A stretch of 64,000 nt of DNA from the NCBI GenBank assembly GCA_021604005.1, contig BQIV01000002.1:124001-188000 (forward strand), written 5' to 3'. A program made the position numbers and the translations under genes. Shown here piece by piece: positions 22,107 to 26,851 of this stretch. The notes under the pieces are model-generated. The model searched no databases, was not told the origin of the DNA, and saw only the letters and a list, made by a program, of their open reading frames with translations. The stretch is from Nitrospirales bacterium (lineage in GTDB: Bacteria; Nitrospirota; Nitrospiria; Nitrospirales; UBA8639). Each line of letters begins with the position of its first letter. Position 1 is the first letter of the stretch.

Positions 22107-23534
22107 TTACGCAACCAAATGCCAGCCTCGGTCCTGTTGTATCGTGGTTCGAACATGTTCCAATCCATGCGAATGTGCCACGTCTCCTCCTGATTCACTG
22201 AATCGTCCTGTATGCCCATGATTGCCAGAACTCTCATTCCCAAACTGTTCATGGAAATGTGGGGTCTCTTCATGCACATCGAACTCTTCTAACTCCATGT
22301 CGGCTTGTCCGAGCTGCCCCTCTAATTGCTGAACGTTCTGCGAAGCCAAGGCTCGCAACACCGGGTTATCAAGAAGGACACCGGCATATACCTGACGCTG
22401 CTGCACACCGACATCTACCTGCATGCGGGCGGCTTCGGACAATTGCACATCGATTTGCAATCGATGTGGTACCGGCGTATTGAGCAACTGAAGGCGTTCA
22501 TCGAAACTTCCACCTTTAACAATCAGCTGTCCCTGACTCGTTATGACAGGAGAGCCGGAAGACGAATCGAAATTGTGTCCGTGACCAGTTCCTGCGTGAT
22601 GGCCAAAGGGAAGACCATGCCCTCCCTGTCCAGAACCACTTTCAGCTCCCAGCGATATGTAAAATGGCTCGAGAGTTTTTCCCTCTCCCTGGACACGAGA
22701 AAGTCCTTGCGTCAGGTCATCACGAGAAGCCTGCAGCACCGTTCCGCCTATCGGATTTTCCACAATCGTGTGCGAATACGTCCCACTTCCTTCACCCCCG
22801 ACTGCAAGACGTTGCGTAATGGCGCCAGCGTCAAGAGATGGCGATATCGCTGGTACAGAGGGTGGCAAGAGTCGTGGCTCATGCGTGCCTTGAGAGGTCT
22901 CCCGGACAAGCGGCGCCACCAGTCCATCACTTGCAATGACTGGTTGAGGAACAACTCCAGTTCGCACACTTGAACGAGTCGCAATGTGTGCCGGGAATGG
23001 GGAATCCTGATGTGGCGTGGCAATTTCACGAATGACTTCACTTTGTGCAGGATCAATACTGGTACCTGCAGGTGTCCCGGCATGATTCAATCTATGGAGA
23101 AGCGCTCGAACTTGCCGTATGAAGGCATGACCTCCATCCTGATTCGCCACTGTGCCGGAAGGAGTCTTGAGTGCATTCACGGCATTCAAGATATGTTGAG
23201 TCGCCTCGCCGTTCGATACGGGTGTCGAAGCCAATTGCAGTGAAACTGTTCCCTGCTGTTCAACCAGGATCAATCCTTGAGCGGCAAGTTCATCAAGAAT
23301 TTCCTGGTCAGTCAGTATGGTTTCAGGAAGGATGGCCTGGTCCTCCAAGGAAAGAAATGCTGTCGAAGCTTCGTCCTGCAGTGCAGGCTGAAGGCCGCCT
23401 AACACATCCAAAAATGTTACCGGCTCACCACCGTGCTCAGACGAGTCATAGCGTAACCCTGTTGCCCCCGCTCCGGCATGTCCCGACACAAGATTTGGGG
23501 AACTGGTAAAGATGGGAAGAAAGGGACTAGTCAT
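22107..23534 (-). CDS. fliK: Flagellar hook-length control protein FliK
   Basis: 475 residues. The N-terminal and middle regions are low-complexity, rich in Gly, His, Ser and Gln, as expected for the molecular ruler. The C-terminal part has the FliK switch domain: RLQIDVQLSEAARMQVDV, VYAGVLLDNPVLRALASQNV and LEGQLGQADMELEEFDV. The last 60 residues are His-rich. FliK measures hook length and triggers FlhB switching. Its position between a motE-like gene and flgD is usual. Confidence 0.85.
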   Translation of the reverse strand: MTSPFLPIFTSSPNLVSGHAGAGATGLRYDSSEHGGEPVTFLDVLGGLQPALQDEASTAFLSLEDQAILPETILTDQEILDELAAQGLILVEQQGTVSLQLASTPVSNGEATQHILNAVNALKTPSGTVANQDGGHAFIRQVRALLHRLNHAGTPAGTSIDPAQSEVIREIATPHQDSPFPAHIATRSSVRTGVVPQPVIASDGLVAPLVRETSQGTHEPRLLPPSVPAISPSLDAGAITQRLAVGGEGSGTYSHTIVENPIGGTVLQASRDDLTQGLSRVQGEGKTLEPFYISLGAESGSGQGGHGLPFGHHAGTGHGHNFDSSSGSPVITSQGQLIVKGGSFDERLQLLNTPVPHRLQIDVQLSEAARMQVDVGVQQRQVYAGVLLDNPVLRALASQNVQQLEGQLGQADMELEEFDVHEETPHFHEQFGNESSGNHGHTGRFSESGGDVAHSHGLEHVRTTIQQDRGWHLVA

Positions 23535-23570
23535 CGTATGTCTCTACCTCTTATCTGCACACACTCCCGT

Positions 23571-24182
23571 TTACTTTTTTGTCGATCGCTGAAAGTTTCG
23601 CAATCCGTGTGACAGCGCAGCCGCCTTTTCCGGGGTGACTCCCGCCAACACCACCGCAGCTTTTTTACTCTTGATTCCTGACAGAATTTCTAAGGCTAAT
23701 CGTTCATCCATTTTTTCTATCCTGAGTGCCGCCTCTTCTGGATCCATGGCCCCATACACTTTCACTAAATGCTCCAGGGAAGGATCGTCCTTGGGTTGTT
23801 CCTGTTTTTTTCCATTAAGTGCTGCGGCCTGGTTTTGTAACCGTTCGGCTTCTTTTGCCTGACGCTCAGCTAGTGCTTCAACGTCACGTTGCAGGCCTTC
23901 TATTCGTGCTTCTTTTTGCTGCAAACGCTGTTCCCGCTCTTCTAGATCCTTCAAACGTCGTTGCAATTGCTGAACAAGCGAGGCTTCTTCGCTGATCTCT
24001 TCACTCGACTCTATACTCTCAACACTTTGACTTTCTTTAATTATTTCCTCAGACACCTGATGTTCCTCACCCACCGAATAGGAGACTGAAACGACCGCAG
24101 TTCCTCCAAGAACGATCAAGACCATCCACCAGGGAAGAATCCCGAAACACGGCAATATTTTTCTACCAGGCGAATTTTGCAT
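23571..24182 (-). CDS. MotE-like flagellar coiled-coil membrane protein
   Basis: 203 residues from an ATG preceded by GGAG. One membrane helix lies near 14-36 (WWMVLIVLGGTAVVSVSYSV), then a long coiled coil (about 65-125, rich in Glu, Gln, Arg) and a C-terminal domain like MgtE_N: YGAMDPEEAALRIEKMDERL, then LEILSGIKSKKAAVVLAGVT. This architecture and the site between fliJ and fliK match the MotE family, described as a chaperone for the stator protein MotC in some alphaproteobacteria; the role here is inferred. Its start codon, ribosome-binding site and first codons are copied in the 90-bp tandem repeats just upstream. Confidence 0.65.
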   Translation of the reverse strand: MQNSPGRKILPCFGILPWWMVLIVLGGTAVVSVSYSVGEEHQVSEEIIKESQSVESIESSEEISEEASLVQQLQRRLKDLEEREQRLQQKEARIEGLQRDVEALAERQAKEAERLQNQAAALNGKKQEQPKDDPSLEHLVKVYGAMDPEEAALRIEKMDERLALEILSGIKSKKAAVVLAGVTPEKAAALSHGLRNFQRSTKK

Positions 24183-24460
24183 AGTTGTTACTCCTGCTAC
24201 TGCCCTCACACCCAAGGCCCAACATCAACAGGTAGCACCCCGTGCCTGCTGGTGCCTAGGCGAATTTTGCATAGTCGACTCTCCTACCACTTGCCTTACA
24301 TCTAAAGTCCAATGTCATCAGGTAACTCCCTGTGCCCGCTGGAGCCTGGGCGAATTTTGCATAGTCGTTACTCCTGCTAGCTACCCCACACCCAAGGTCC
24401 AACATCAACAGGTAGCACCCTGTGCCCGCCGGAGCCTGGGCGAATTTTGCATAGTCGATA
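24171..24460. repeat. 90-bp tandem repeats copying the motE-like translation start
   Basis: CGAATTTTGCATAG recurs at 24171, 24261, 24351 and 24441, an exact 90-base period: three full units and a partial fourth. In gene orientation each unit carries an AGGAG-like site (weaker in the outermost copy), an ATG and codons for MQNSP. The copy nearest the gene is the real start; the others open short ORFs of about 14-15 codons, such as MQNSPRLQRAQGVT then TGA. In another frame the units encode a repeated DYAKFAQAPAGTG, which I regard as accidental. Confidence 0.9.
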
Positions 24461-24468
24461 TTCCTACG

Positions 24469-25033
24469 ATAGTTTTTTAACTTTTCATTAAGACGTATAG
24501 CCGTGCCATGCCCTTCCGTCTGTACGAAGTGTGTCCGCACGCTGTGTGAGTGGGGGTCATTCGGCTGGAAGCTATGTGGTTCCACGATAGTCTTTGGGGA
24601 TACGATTGCGTCAGAGGACATGGTGCTCGAGCCCACTGCTCACTTCACCGTTCATTGCCTATGTTCTTTGTCGTCTCAGTGTTGACTCCCTGCCGGGGTT
24701 CGTCCCGGCGGCCAAGTATGTTGCTGAGCGCGTCCCAAAGGGCGCACCCATTGTTGTGAAGGCAAAAGGACCTAAAACCATTGACGCCCAGGCCAGGTTC
24801 ATCGGATGAGCTGAACCCCGGTTGGTGGGGCGGGCTAACTCGCTGCGCTCAAACAAGCCCGTCCAGCATGAGAGGCGTTCACTCAACGGACTCTAGCGAA
24901 ACCTCATCCTTACTCACGGTATGCACATGCCCGGTCGAACGCAAGAACACACATCAACCGTATGAAAGAGTCGTGGCACGGCTAGAGCCTGCAAGCGTCA
25001 GAGCATAGGTACTAAGAAAAGTTAAAAAACTAT
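24469..25033. mobile_element. 565-bp segment with perfect 17-bp terminal inverted repeats
   Basis: ATAGTTTTTTAACTTTT at 24469-24485 is the exact reverse complement of AAAAGTTAAAAAACTAT at 25017-25033. The 530 bases between them have no convincing gene; short frames there look accidental. An internal hairpin GCCGGGG-TTCG-TCCCGGC lies near 24691-24712. The size, the ends and an AT at both borders fit a non-autonomous (MITE-like) insertion between fliJ and the motE-like gene. No transposase is present, so the type is inferred. Confidence 0.6.
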
Positions 25034-25058
25034 ATTTGCCGTCATAGGTGTACGTTTC

Positions 25059-25502
25059 TTATGTAAACCCATCACGGGCAATCGTTACATGCTTGTGAGC
25101 GGTCGCTTCTTCCATCATGGCTTGTTCTTGTTTCGCAAGTTTTTTCATGTAGGCGGCTTCTTTTTTCTCAATGACAATTTCAACCACTCGCCTGGCATGA
25201 TGAGCCGCCTGCAAACGTTTTTTAAGACCAAGGAGTTTTTTGTCGATCTCATATATCTTCATCGCCTGCATTTCTAACAGCCCTCCGGTTTCATCTAACC
25301 AACAATAACGCTGCTCGGCAAATATCGTATCGACTCCGGATTGAAGGCTCCGATCTAAGGATACCGCTAAACGATCGATCTCATCCCTCAGGTGCTGGGT
25401 TTTTGCTATGTGTTGAGATTTTTCGAGTTCCGCAAACATCACTTCCTCTCGAATCACATCTTCAACTTGCTTTCGATATCGCAGAAGCGTCGTCCAATTC
25501 AT
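25059..25502 (-). CDS. fliJ: Flagellar export protein FliJ
   Basis: 147 residues, almost entirely charged helix and coiled coil (RYRKQVEDVIREEVMFAELE, then LKKRLQAAHHARRVVEIVIE), as expected for the FliJ stalk of the export ATPase. Its ATG overlaps the fliI stop as ATGA. FliJ family sequences are weakly conserved, so the call rests on structure and position. Confidence 0.85.
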   Translation of the reverse strand: MNWTTLLRYRKQVEDVIREEVMFAELEKSQHIAKTQHLRDEIDRLAVSLDRSLQSGVDTIFAEQRYCWLDETGGLLEMQAMKIYEIDKKLLGLKKRLQAAHHARRVVEIVIEKKEAAYMKKLAKQEQAMMEEATAHKHVTIARDGFT

Positions 25503-26851
25503 GCTTGCCCTTTCCCACTCGCCTGTGATGAAGAGACGTGCTGAGCCTGTTCCAATAACTCATATAATGCGTGAACGCTGTCTTCGAGACGTAGTGGCGT
25601 CTCTCGGTGTTGTGTTAAAAATCGACGGATCGCATCACGCATCGTAATGGCCACATCCAATTTGACATTACTCCCAGGTTGATAGGCCCCTAGATTGATC
25701 AACTCTTCGGAATTCTGATACACCGACATGATTTCAAGAAATGATCGAGCCGCATTGAGATGCTCAGAAGGCACAACATCCGACATGACCCGGCTAATAC
25801 TGCCTAAGACATCAATCGCCGGAAAGTGCCCTTGAGTCGCCAAGTTTCGAGACAAGATAATATGTCCATCCAAAATCGCACGAACCGCATCGGCAATGGG
25901 GTCCGAGAGGTCATCGCCATCCACAAGCACAGTATAGAGACCAGTAATCGACCCACCTCGAGCCGGACCGACACGCTCTAAGACTTTAGGCAACAGATTA
26001 AAAACTGATGGAGGATAGCCTTTGGCCGTTGGCGGCTCCCCGACTGCGAGTCCAATTTCTCGCTGCGCATGGGCTAATCGTGTCACCGAATCCATCATAA
26101 GGAGGACATGCTTACCCTGATCACGAAAATATTCTGCAATAGCCGTTGCCAGGAGTGCACCACGAAGGCGAACCAACGGTGATTGATCAGACGTGGCCGC
26201 AATTACCACTGAACGCTGCAACCCTTCAGGCCCAAGTTCGCGTTCTATAAACTCTTTGACTTCTCGTCCACGCTCGCCAATGAGTGCAATCACATTCACA
26301 TCCGCTGACGCATGACGGCTGATCATGCCGAGCAACACACTTTTCCCGACTCCACTTCCGGCAAATATGCCCAGCTTCTGGCCAATACCACACGTCAGCA
26401 AGGCATTCACCGATCGAAGGCCAAGATCCATCGGTTGTGCAATTCGGTCCCGCTCAAACGGTGTAGGAATCTTTCCGCTGAGCGGATACGCTTCAGTGAA
26501 TGGAATTGGTCCCCGCCCATCGATGACTCGCCCCAATCCATCTAAGACACGGCCCAAAGTTCGCGGACCAACTCGCACATGCGACGGTTGCGATACATAG
26601 AGAATACGGTCGCCCGCACGGATGCCTTGCATGTCTCCATACGGCATCAACATCACACGATCCTGCCGAAACCCGACAACTTCCCCTTCCGTCACGATCT
26701 CTCCTGACTCGTTCAGTATGTGACAGCTTTGTCCAACAGTCACTGGTGGACCAGTCCCTTCCACTGTCAGCCCGACAGCGTTTACGACTCGACCAAAGAC
26801 CATGATGGAATCAGTTTCGTTCAGACGTGGAAGAAGGCTGGCCAGGTTCAT
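25499..26851 (-). CDS. fliI: Flagellar export ATPase FliI
   Basis: 450 residues from the ATG at 26851, preceded by AAGGTGAG; a longer frame adds 21 doubtful residues. Walker A is GIFAGSGVGKSVLLGM; Walker B is HVLLMMDSVTRLA; ALIGERGREVKEFIERELGP and YPPSVFNLLPKVLERVG are FliI/F1-beta blocks. It energises export with FliH and FliJ. The start overlaps fliH by 41 bases. Confidence 0.96.
   Translation of the reverse strand: MNLASLLPRLNETDSIMVFGRVVNAVGLTVEGTGPPVTVGQSCHILNESGEIVTEGEVVGFRQDRVMLMPYGDMQGIRAGDRILYVSQPSHVRVGPRTLGRVLDGLGRVIDGRGPIPFTEAYPLSGKIPTPFERDRIAQPMDLGLRSVNALLTCGIGQKLGIFAGSGVGKSVLLGMISRHASADVNVIALIGERGREVKEFIERELGPEGLQRSVVIAATSDQSPLVRLRGALLATAIAEYFRDQGKHVLLMMDSVTRLAHAQREIGLAVGEPPTAKGYPPSVFNLLPKVLERVGPARGGSITGLYTVLVDGDDLSDPIADAVRAILDGHIILSRNLATQGHFPAIDVLGSISRVMSDVVPSEHLNAARSFLEIMSVYQNSEELINLGAYQPGSNVKLDVAITMRDAIRRFLTQHRETPLRLEDSVHALYELLEQAQHVSSSQASGKGQA

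What the first reader, a model, noticed from the sequence alone, without database searches (positions are those of the whole stretch)
24469..25033. 565-bp MITE-like segment with perfect 17-bp inverted ends
Exact inverted repeats bound a gene-free segment that separates fliJ from the motE-like gene in an otherwise compact operon. The left end abuts the partial fourth copy of the 90-bp repeat, so the element may have truncated that array.
Basis: partly seen in the sequence, partly recalled or inferred. Interest (0 to 1): 0.5.

Follow-up and report, generated by a model that had tools for sequence, protein, structure and literature searches.

The report
Mobile element carrying a conserved fold
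A 565-base piece of mobile DNA that cannot move by itself has landed inside a flagellar gene cluster; its middle is a folded sequence found across a family of Nitrospira-like bacteria, where in a related genus it sits between reshuffled blocks of toxin-antitoxin and defence genes.

Summary
In detail: 18-nt perfect inverted ends bound a segment without recognised genes between fliJ and the motE-like gene. It is a MITE. The genome has about 65 relatives. The base outside the inverted end is T at 80 of 81 ends, so it targets TA; the one exception is this copy's left end. The fliJ-motE junction lacks it in four of four congeners, and taking it out restores a conserved leader with array homology on both sides, so it did not truncate the 90-bp array. 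No transposase with these ends was found.

In two single-contig genomes of a sister genus it forms arrays: 59 of 65 neighbours under 2 kb share orientation, with toxin-antitoxin genes between modules and defence genes in the centres. Segments between modules are reordered. Integron integrase and attC consensus were tested and not met. I favour a recombination joint of unknown mechanism, carried on a MITE in the window's genus.

The parts
24469..25033 (+). MITE copy, 565 bp (orientation as used in all calls)
   Evidence: 18-nt perfect TIRs; family in own genome
24469..24486 (+). left terminal inverted repeat
   Evidence: 25 exact matches listed genome-wide, this element's two ends included
25016..25033 (-). 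right terminal inverted repeat
24468..24468 (.). outer left flank base G, the only one of 81 TIR ends that is not T (decayed side of the TA target)
25034..25034 (.). outer right flank base A (T on the other strand), intact side of the TA target
24690..24903 (+). match of the family-wide structured module (model R1 positions 1-192), 91.5 bits against up to 199.3 for other own copies; this copy has two variant segments
   Evidence: C2:148690-148903
24761..24892 (+). best conserved stretch of the element (element positions 293-424)
   Evidence: 54 near-complete rows aligned from the own genome and two congeners (one copy is in twice)
24717..24760 (+). element positions 249-292; in many copies replaced by the other arm of the second hairpin
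24893..24986 (+). element positions 425-518, missing in the shorter copies
25059..25502 (-). fliJ, upstream neighbour in the operon
24169..24467 (-). 90-bp tandem array of the motE initiation region; the element sits upstream of its first SD/ATG

Best explanation
A non-autonomous, TA-targeting MITE of one Nitrospirales genus, inserted between the end of fliJ and the first initiation region of the motE leader array. It was probably moved in trans by a transposase that recognises its TATAG-type ends (inferred; transposase not seen). Its cargo is not random: the centre is a ~190-nt module whose fold (five helices) is held by compensatory changes (shown). In a sister genus the same module, mostly without recognisable inverted ends, stands at the joints of reordered gene segments rich in toxin-antitoxin genes, in arrays that are largely of one orientation per arm (shown in two genomes). 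I think most likely that the module is a recombination joint, used by an unknown enzyme or by ordinary homologous exchange between direct copies (inferred), and that the window's genus carries it on a MITE. At this locus the element most likely acts only as a 565-nt spacer read through in the operon (inferred).
For: MITE: 69 model matches, 150 of 750 candidates scored; four are second pieces of one copy; T at 80 of 81 ends; 62 of 66 held model matches of the own genome have at least one TIR; two of four congeners have the family by this query: 18 and 9 pieces; empty site. Fold: (45 pairs; 90.2% of cells paired against 84.3% shuffled and 30-49% slid by 1-3 columns; 24 pairs with double changes against 14.3 shuffled, 0 of 500). 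Family-wide: 38 of 48 genomes of the family match by DNA; 13 of 295 genomes drawn from the phylum match, 12 of them in this family. Arrays. Toxin-antitoxin and defence genes. Reordering: (8 of the 9 gaps with a change of order hold a module; of all 22 gaps scored as broken 19 do, against 4 of 10 kept; Fisher p=0.013).
Against: No transposase with these ends. This copy's left flank is not T. Array segments include ordinary genes (M1 peptidase, SecB, peroxidase, Omp85), so they are not pure cassettes. Small clusters are sometimes mixed in orientation, and neighbours 2-5 kb apart agree less often (11 of 15, 8 of 11). The scoring of broken gaps counts length differences, which modules themselves can cause. 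No gene-orientation rule relative to the module. No recombinase among the 30 array genes I gave to Pfam; many array genes were not scanned. Copies differ by roughly 10-25%, which does not suit RecA exchange well.
Confidence: 0.72

Rival explanations
1. An ordinary MITE whose folded centre matters only at the RNA level, as proposed for Correia/NEMIS elements: read through in mRNAs, it is processed or stabilises transcripts; the arrays of the sister genus are insertion hot spots.
For: Strand asymmetry of imperfect pairs: A-C pairs (G-U on the reverse strand) 117 against 52 G-U in 47 sequences, 240 against 136 in 134; the reverse strand folds more stably in 96 of 134. In the own genome 13 of 19 copies between co-directional genes read the reverse strand with the genes, as here (crude ORF calls, counted by eye; on recount, not significant). 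Correia/NEMIS RNA has been proposed to be cut by RNase III.
Against: No such bias in the larger set: 19 of 49; mostly null. Hot-spot insertion does not predict largely one orientation per arm or segments moved between arrays. The asymmetry leans on a few columns and on related sequences.
Confidence: 0.28
2. Degenerate integron: the module is an attC site and the arrays are clusters of attC sites without integrase (CALIN).
For: Same-orientation arrays, toxin-antitoxin content, reordered segments. Two other genomes of the family have integron integrases above the curated cut-off (G008, G010).
Against: RYYYAAC and GTTRRRY near opposite ends in 0 of 262 module sequences (shuffled mean 0.42). No integrase above cut-off in G018, G020 or the own genome. 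G010's integrase contigs C39, C78 and C99 carry none of the eight module matches scored for it. Genes have no fixed orientation.
Confidence: 0.04
3. The arrays arose by tandem duplication and deletion between direct copies, with no dedicated recombination; uniform orientation is a by-product.
For: Close same-orientation pairs under 600 bp (13 of 14 and 8 of 9) look like tandem duplication; ordinary genes are included.
Against: A DUF2283 segment and a Phd/ParE segment lie in different arrays, about 200 kb apart, in the two genomes, which local duplication does not give.
Confidence: 0.3
4. A fixed regulatory segment of the flagellar operon, not mobile.
For: Position inside a compact operon.
Against: Absent from the junction in four of four congeners; dozens of copies elsewhere.
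Confidence: 0.01

Closest known systems
RUP, Correia (NEMIS) and ERIC type bacterial MITEs
   Same: Short non-coding elements with inverted ends, target duplications and TA at the termini, transcripts predicted to fold (passages of PMC2229807)
   Different: Those are given as about 100-200 bp; this family is 321-817 bp between paired ends, and its multi-helix centre is conserved in other genera mostly without these ends
Sedentary chromosomal integrons and CALIN
   Same: Arrays of structured repeats largely in one orientation, toxin-antitoxin genes, reordered segments
   Different: No integrase above cut-off in the genomes with arrays, no attC consensus, genes without fixed orientation, arms of opposite orientation around defence genes. 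IntegronFinder 2.0 reports 2 CALIN in the phylum, both in Ca. N. inopinata (passages of PMC9024848)
Caulobacter CIR repeats
   Same: Dispersed repeat with an RNA structure conserved between species, mobility unproven (passage of PMC2229807)
   Different: The passage describes two arms with a methyltransferase motif; sequences were not compared here

Membership tests
MITE | terminal inverted repeats shared by many copies | tested here: met
MITE | short target duplication | tested here: met
   T outside 80 of 81 ends; this copy has one decayed side; a single-TA empty site was not seen for other copies
MITE | no transposase inside | tested here: met
   no Pfam match in four of the six ORFs of 50 aa or more; two not scanned
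MITE | insertion shown by an empty site in relatives | tested here: met
   (this site only)
MITE | autonomous partner with the same ends | tested here: inconclusive
   2 DDE_3 and 16 DDE_Tnp_1 matches in five genomes of the genus; no TIR within 3 mismatches in their loci, a lone 4-mismatch hit in three. Other transposase families not searched; assembly breaks at copies
IS630/Tc1-mariner derived element | TA target | tested here: met
IS630/Tc1-mariner derived element | ends match an IS630-type element | tested here: inconclusive
   only a short DDE_3 fragment in the own genome and one match in G004, without such ends within 3 mismatches
Integron | integron integrase in the genomes with the arrays | tested here: not met
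   TIGR02249 below cut-off in G018, G020 and G000
Integron | attC consensus at the ends of the repeat | tested here: not met
   0 of 262 module sequences; the consensus is recalled, not from a call
Integron | segments between repeats are reordered | tested here: met
   (two genomes)
Known Rfam RNA | match above a family's cut-off | tested here: not met
   none at gathering score in 23500-26000; in 20 sister-genus loci one match at E=0.26, 26.6 bits against a cut-off of 45

The most novel reading that the evidence does not exclude
The family has its own cassette system: a ~190-nt folded module acts as the recombination site for an undescribed exchange, without integron integrase, of toxin-antitoxin and defence genes; in the window's genus a TA-targeting MITE has picked the site up and scattered it, so each copy, including the one in the flagellar operon, may be a landing site.
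Probability: 0.22. Interest if true: 0.88.

Novelty: new variant of a known kind. Interest (0 to 1): 0.6.

Why it matters
If the module is a recombination joint, a nitrite-oxidiser lineage has an integron-like way of reordering toxin-antitoxin and defence genes that searches for integrons and for known RNAs would miss. The work gives a covariance model and two single-contig genomes on which to test it. At the least it is a MITE family whose centre is under selection for its fold, which is unusual for an element thought to need only its ends.

Tried and rejected
Looked for a transposase with the same ends: DDE_3 and DDE_Tnp_1 in the five genomes of the genus, 18 matches, none with a TIR within 3 mismatches, three with a lone 4-mismatch hit. 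Looked for inverted ends around modules of other genera: no general signal (212 modules, mean score 17.7 against 17.0 permuted; 4 score 30 or more against about 1 expected, among them one with the window-type ends). A TATAGTCATTCC-type end occurs in a minority (8 of 251 left flanks at 18 of 22 positions or more against 0 reversed; the right-flank control of that script was faulty and is not used). Looked for gene-orientation rules: none that holds across sets; in the named MAG loci the gene 3' of the module is in sense in 28 of 82 at 300 bp, p 0.005 uncorrected, not seen in the two array sets. My notebook says 13 of 17; on recount it is 13 of 19, and I lowered the RNA-level rival from 0.30 to 0.28 for that. 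Plasmid collection: only a 39-nt hairpin match in three Acinetobacter records, taken as unrelated. Intrinsic terminator or promoter pattern inside the element: none (the five terminator-like matches of that region lie outside it). Integron reading: rejected. Literature: eight searches, of which the listings shown are partial, gave no paper describing such a repeat in Nitrospirota; only open-licence PMC is held. I saw passages of PMC2229807, PMC8649781 and PMC9024848, the rest as listings.

Full report
Observation. The segment 24469-25033 has perfect 18-nt inverted ends, no Pfam match in the four of six ORFs tested, no Rfam match at gathering score, and lies between fliJ and the motE-like gene, both on the minus strand. 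Either strand folds somewhat better than shuffles (z -2.75 and -2.90).

It is a MITE. The own genome (4.7 Mb, 92 contigs) has 58 BLAST pieces (40 of 100 candidates scored), 95 TIR-like 18-mers against 15 for the control, and 69 matches to the covariance model of its core, four of them second pieces of one copy (150 of 750 candidates scored). Paired ends lie 321 to 817 bp apart; two 102-bp pairs in that listing, with 3-4 mismatches per end and no BLAST match to the element, were left out. The base just outside the end is T at 80 of 81 ends (up to 2 mismatches to either of two TIR variants): insertion at TA. The single exception is the left end of the window copy. Of 66 held model matches of the own genome, 24 have both TIRs, 38 one (often cut by a contig end) and 4 none; 3 were not held. 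Many contigs of the assembly end inside copies.

Empty site. A search of 40 relatives found fliJ in 15. In the four congeners, read in full, there is no element between fliJ and motE; no TIR within 4 mismatches occurs in any of the 14 relatives' fliJ loci. Two of the four congeners carry the family elsewhere (18 and 9 pieces), two do not by that query; G004 gives one weak DNA match and three weak model matches by other queries. With exactly the 565 bp taken out, one TA-like dinucleotide remains (TC on the operon strand) and the own leader reads GGCAA, three bases, GTAGGA, with ATG 23 nt from GGCAA, as in another own unit; three congeners have 21-22 nt, G001 lacks GGCAA. The array runs on both sides of the insertion and was not truncated. 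Three of the four congeners repeat the motE start region without any MITE there.

The centre is conserved far beyond the element. A query of core plus 3' end matched 38 of 48 genomes of the same family; in the rows listed, matches outside the genus cover only about its first 100-127 nt. In the sister genus the unit shared by the fetched copies is about 200 nt. An alignment of 47 copies, 13 from the window's genus and 34 from the sister genus, supports five helices: 45 pairs, 90.2% of cells paired (84.3% shuffled, at most 48.6% slid), 24 pairs with double changes (14.3 shuffled), covariation score 0.200 (0.105 shuffled, at most 0.085 slid). One measure, further pair types, is not above shuffles (49 against 46.3; 68 of 500 reach it). 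The structure was derived from these sequences, which flatters the slid comparison. The model finds 13 of 295 genomes drawn from the phylum (stricter filters, 8 candidates scored per genome): 12 in this family, one weak elsewhere. Of 96 stretches with an exact 26-nt core pattern in the species collection (scan stopped at its limit) 80 were listed; 79 titles name Nitrospirota-type organisms, one a marine MAG.

Arrays in a sister genus. In the single-contig genomes G018 and G020 the model finds 101 and 75 matches, of which 81 and 64 were listed and used. Fifty and 41 neighbour pairs lie within 5 kb, against means of 7.1 and 4.2 for uniform placement. Under 2 kb, neighbours share orientation in 30 of 35 (G018) and 29 of 30 (G020); at 2-5 kb in 11 of 15 and 8 of 11; beyond that there is no preference. 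The largest clusters read 8 minus then 7 plus, and 9 minus then 10 plus; some small clusters are mixed. Between modules I chose 20 genes for Pfam: 13 are toxin-antitoxin type (ParE twice, one just below its cut-off; Phd/YefM; HigB and an HTH partner; VapB; HicB; HepT twice; a nucleotidyltransferase; DUF5615; addiction-module antitoxin twice), one DUF2283, three other, three without a family. The choice was mine, not random. A less selected test: 5 of 11 ParE matches of the two genomes (one of the five below cut-off, one with a stop inside) lie inside clusters that cover about 2.3% of them (spans summed by hand; binomial p 2.6e-6). The centres between arms hold type I restriction, Dsr1, PtuA and SIR2-like genes. 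Ordinary genes occur too: M1 peptidase, SecB, peroxidase, Omp85.

Reordering. With modules masked, 42 rows of homology of 200 bp or more join the two genomes' arrays, all same-strand (some rows repeat a block because fetched loci overlap, and collinear blocks contribute to this). Of 32 gaps between successive blocks I scored 22 as broken; 19 of these and 4 of the 10 kept gaps hold a module (Fisher p 0.013). That scoring also counts length differences, which modules can cause by themselves; of the 9 gaps with a real change of order or array, 8 hold a module. A DUF2283 segment and a Phd/ParE segment lie in different arrays about 200 kb apart.

What it is not. Integron features fail: no integrase above cut-off in G018, G020 or the own genome, no attC consensus in 262 module sequences. 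Inverted ends are not general around array modules, though a TATAGT-type end occurs in a minority. Whether array modules descend from MITEs or the MITE took up the module cannot be told here.

Judgement. The window feature is a MITE (very likely). Its folded centre is under selection (shown by pairing). That the centre is a recombination joint is the reading I favour, on two genomes only; the mechanism is unknown.

Noticed in passing
window 24169-24467 and L108-L111: The motE initiation region (SD plus ATGCAAAATTCGCC) is tandemly repeated in four of five genomes of the genus, with different unit lengths (90 nt here, about 96 nt in G001), and single in G004; here the units are short ORFs ahead of motE.
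   Followed up: partly
G000, contig ends: Many contigs of the own assembly end inside copies of this element, so copy number is a lower bound and an autonomous partner could be hidden.
   Followed up: no
L313 (G010) and L314 (G008): Integron integrases above the curated cut-off in two of 48 genomes of the family.
   Followed up: no
L297 1733-10616, L303 1081-14022, L305 7435-17951: Defence genes (type I restriction, Dsr1 in two overlapping ORFs, PtuA, SIR2-like) lie between module arms of opposite orientation.
   Followed up: partly
L295 1501-1539: A 39-nt match to the module's second hairpin stands between a magnesium transporter gene and a MerR gene in an Acinetobacter record.
   Followed up: no
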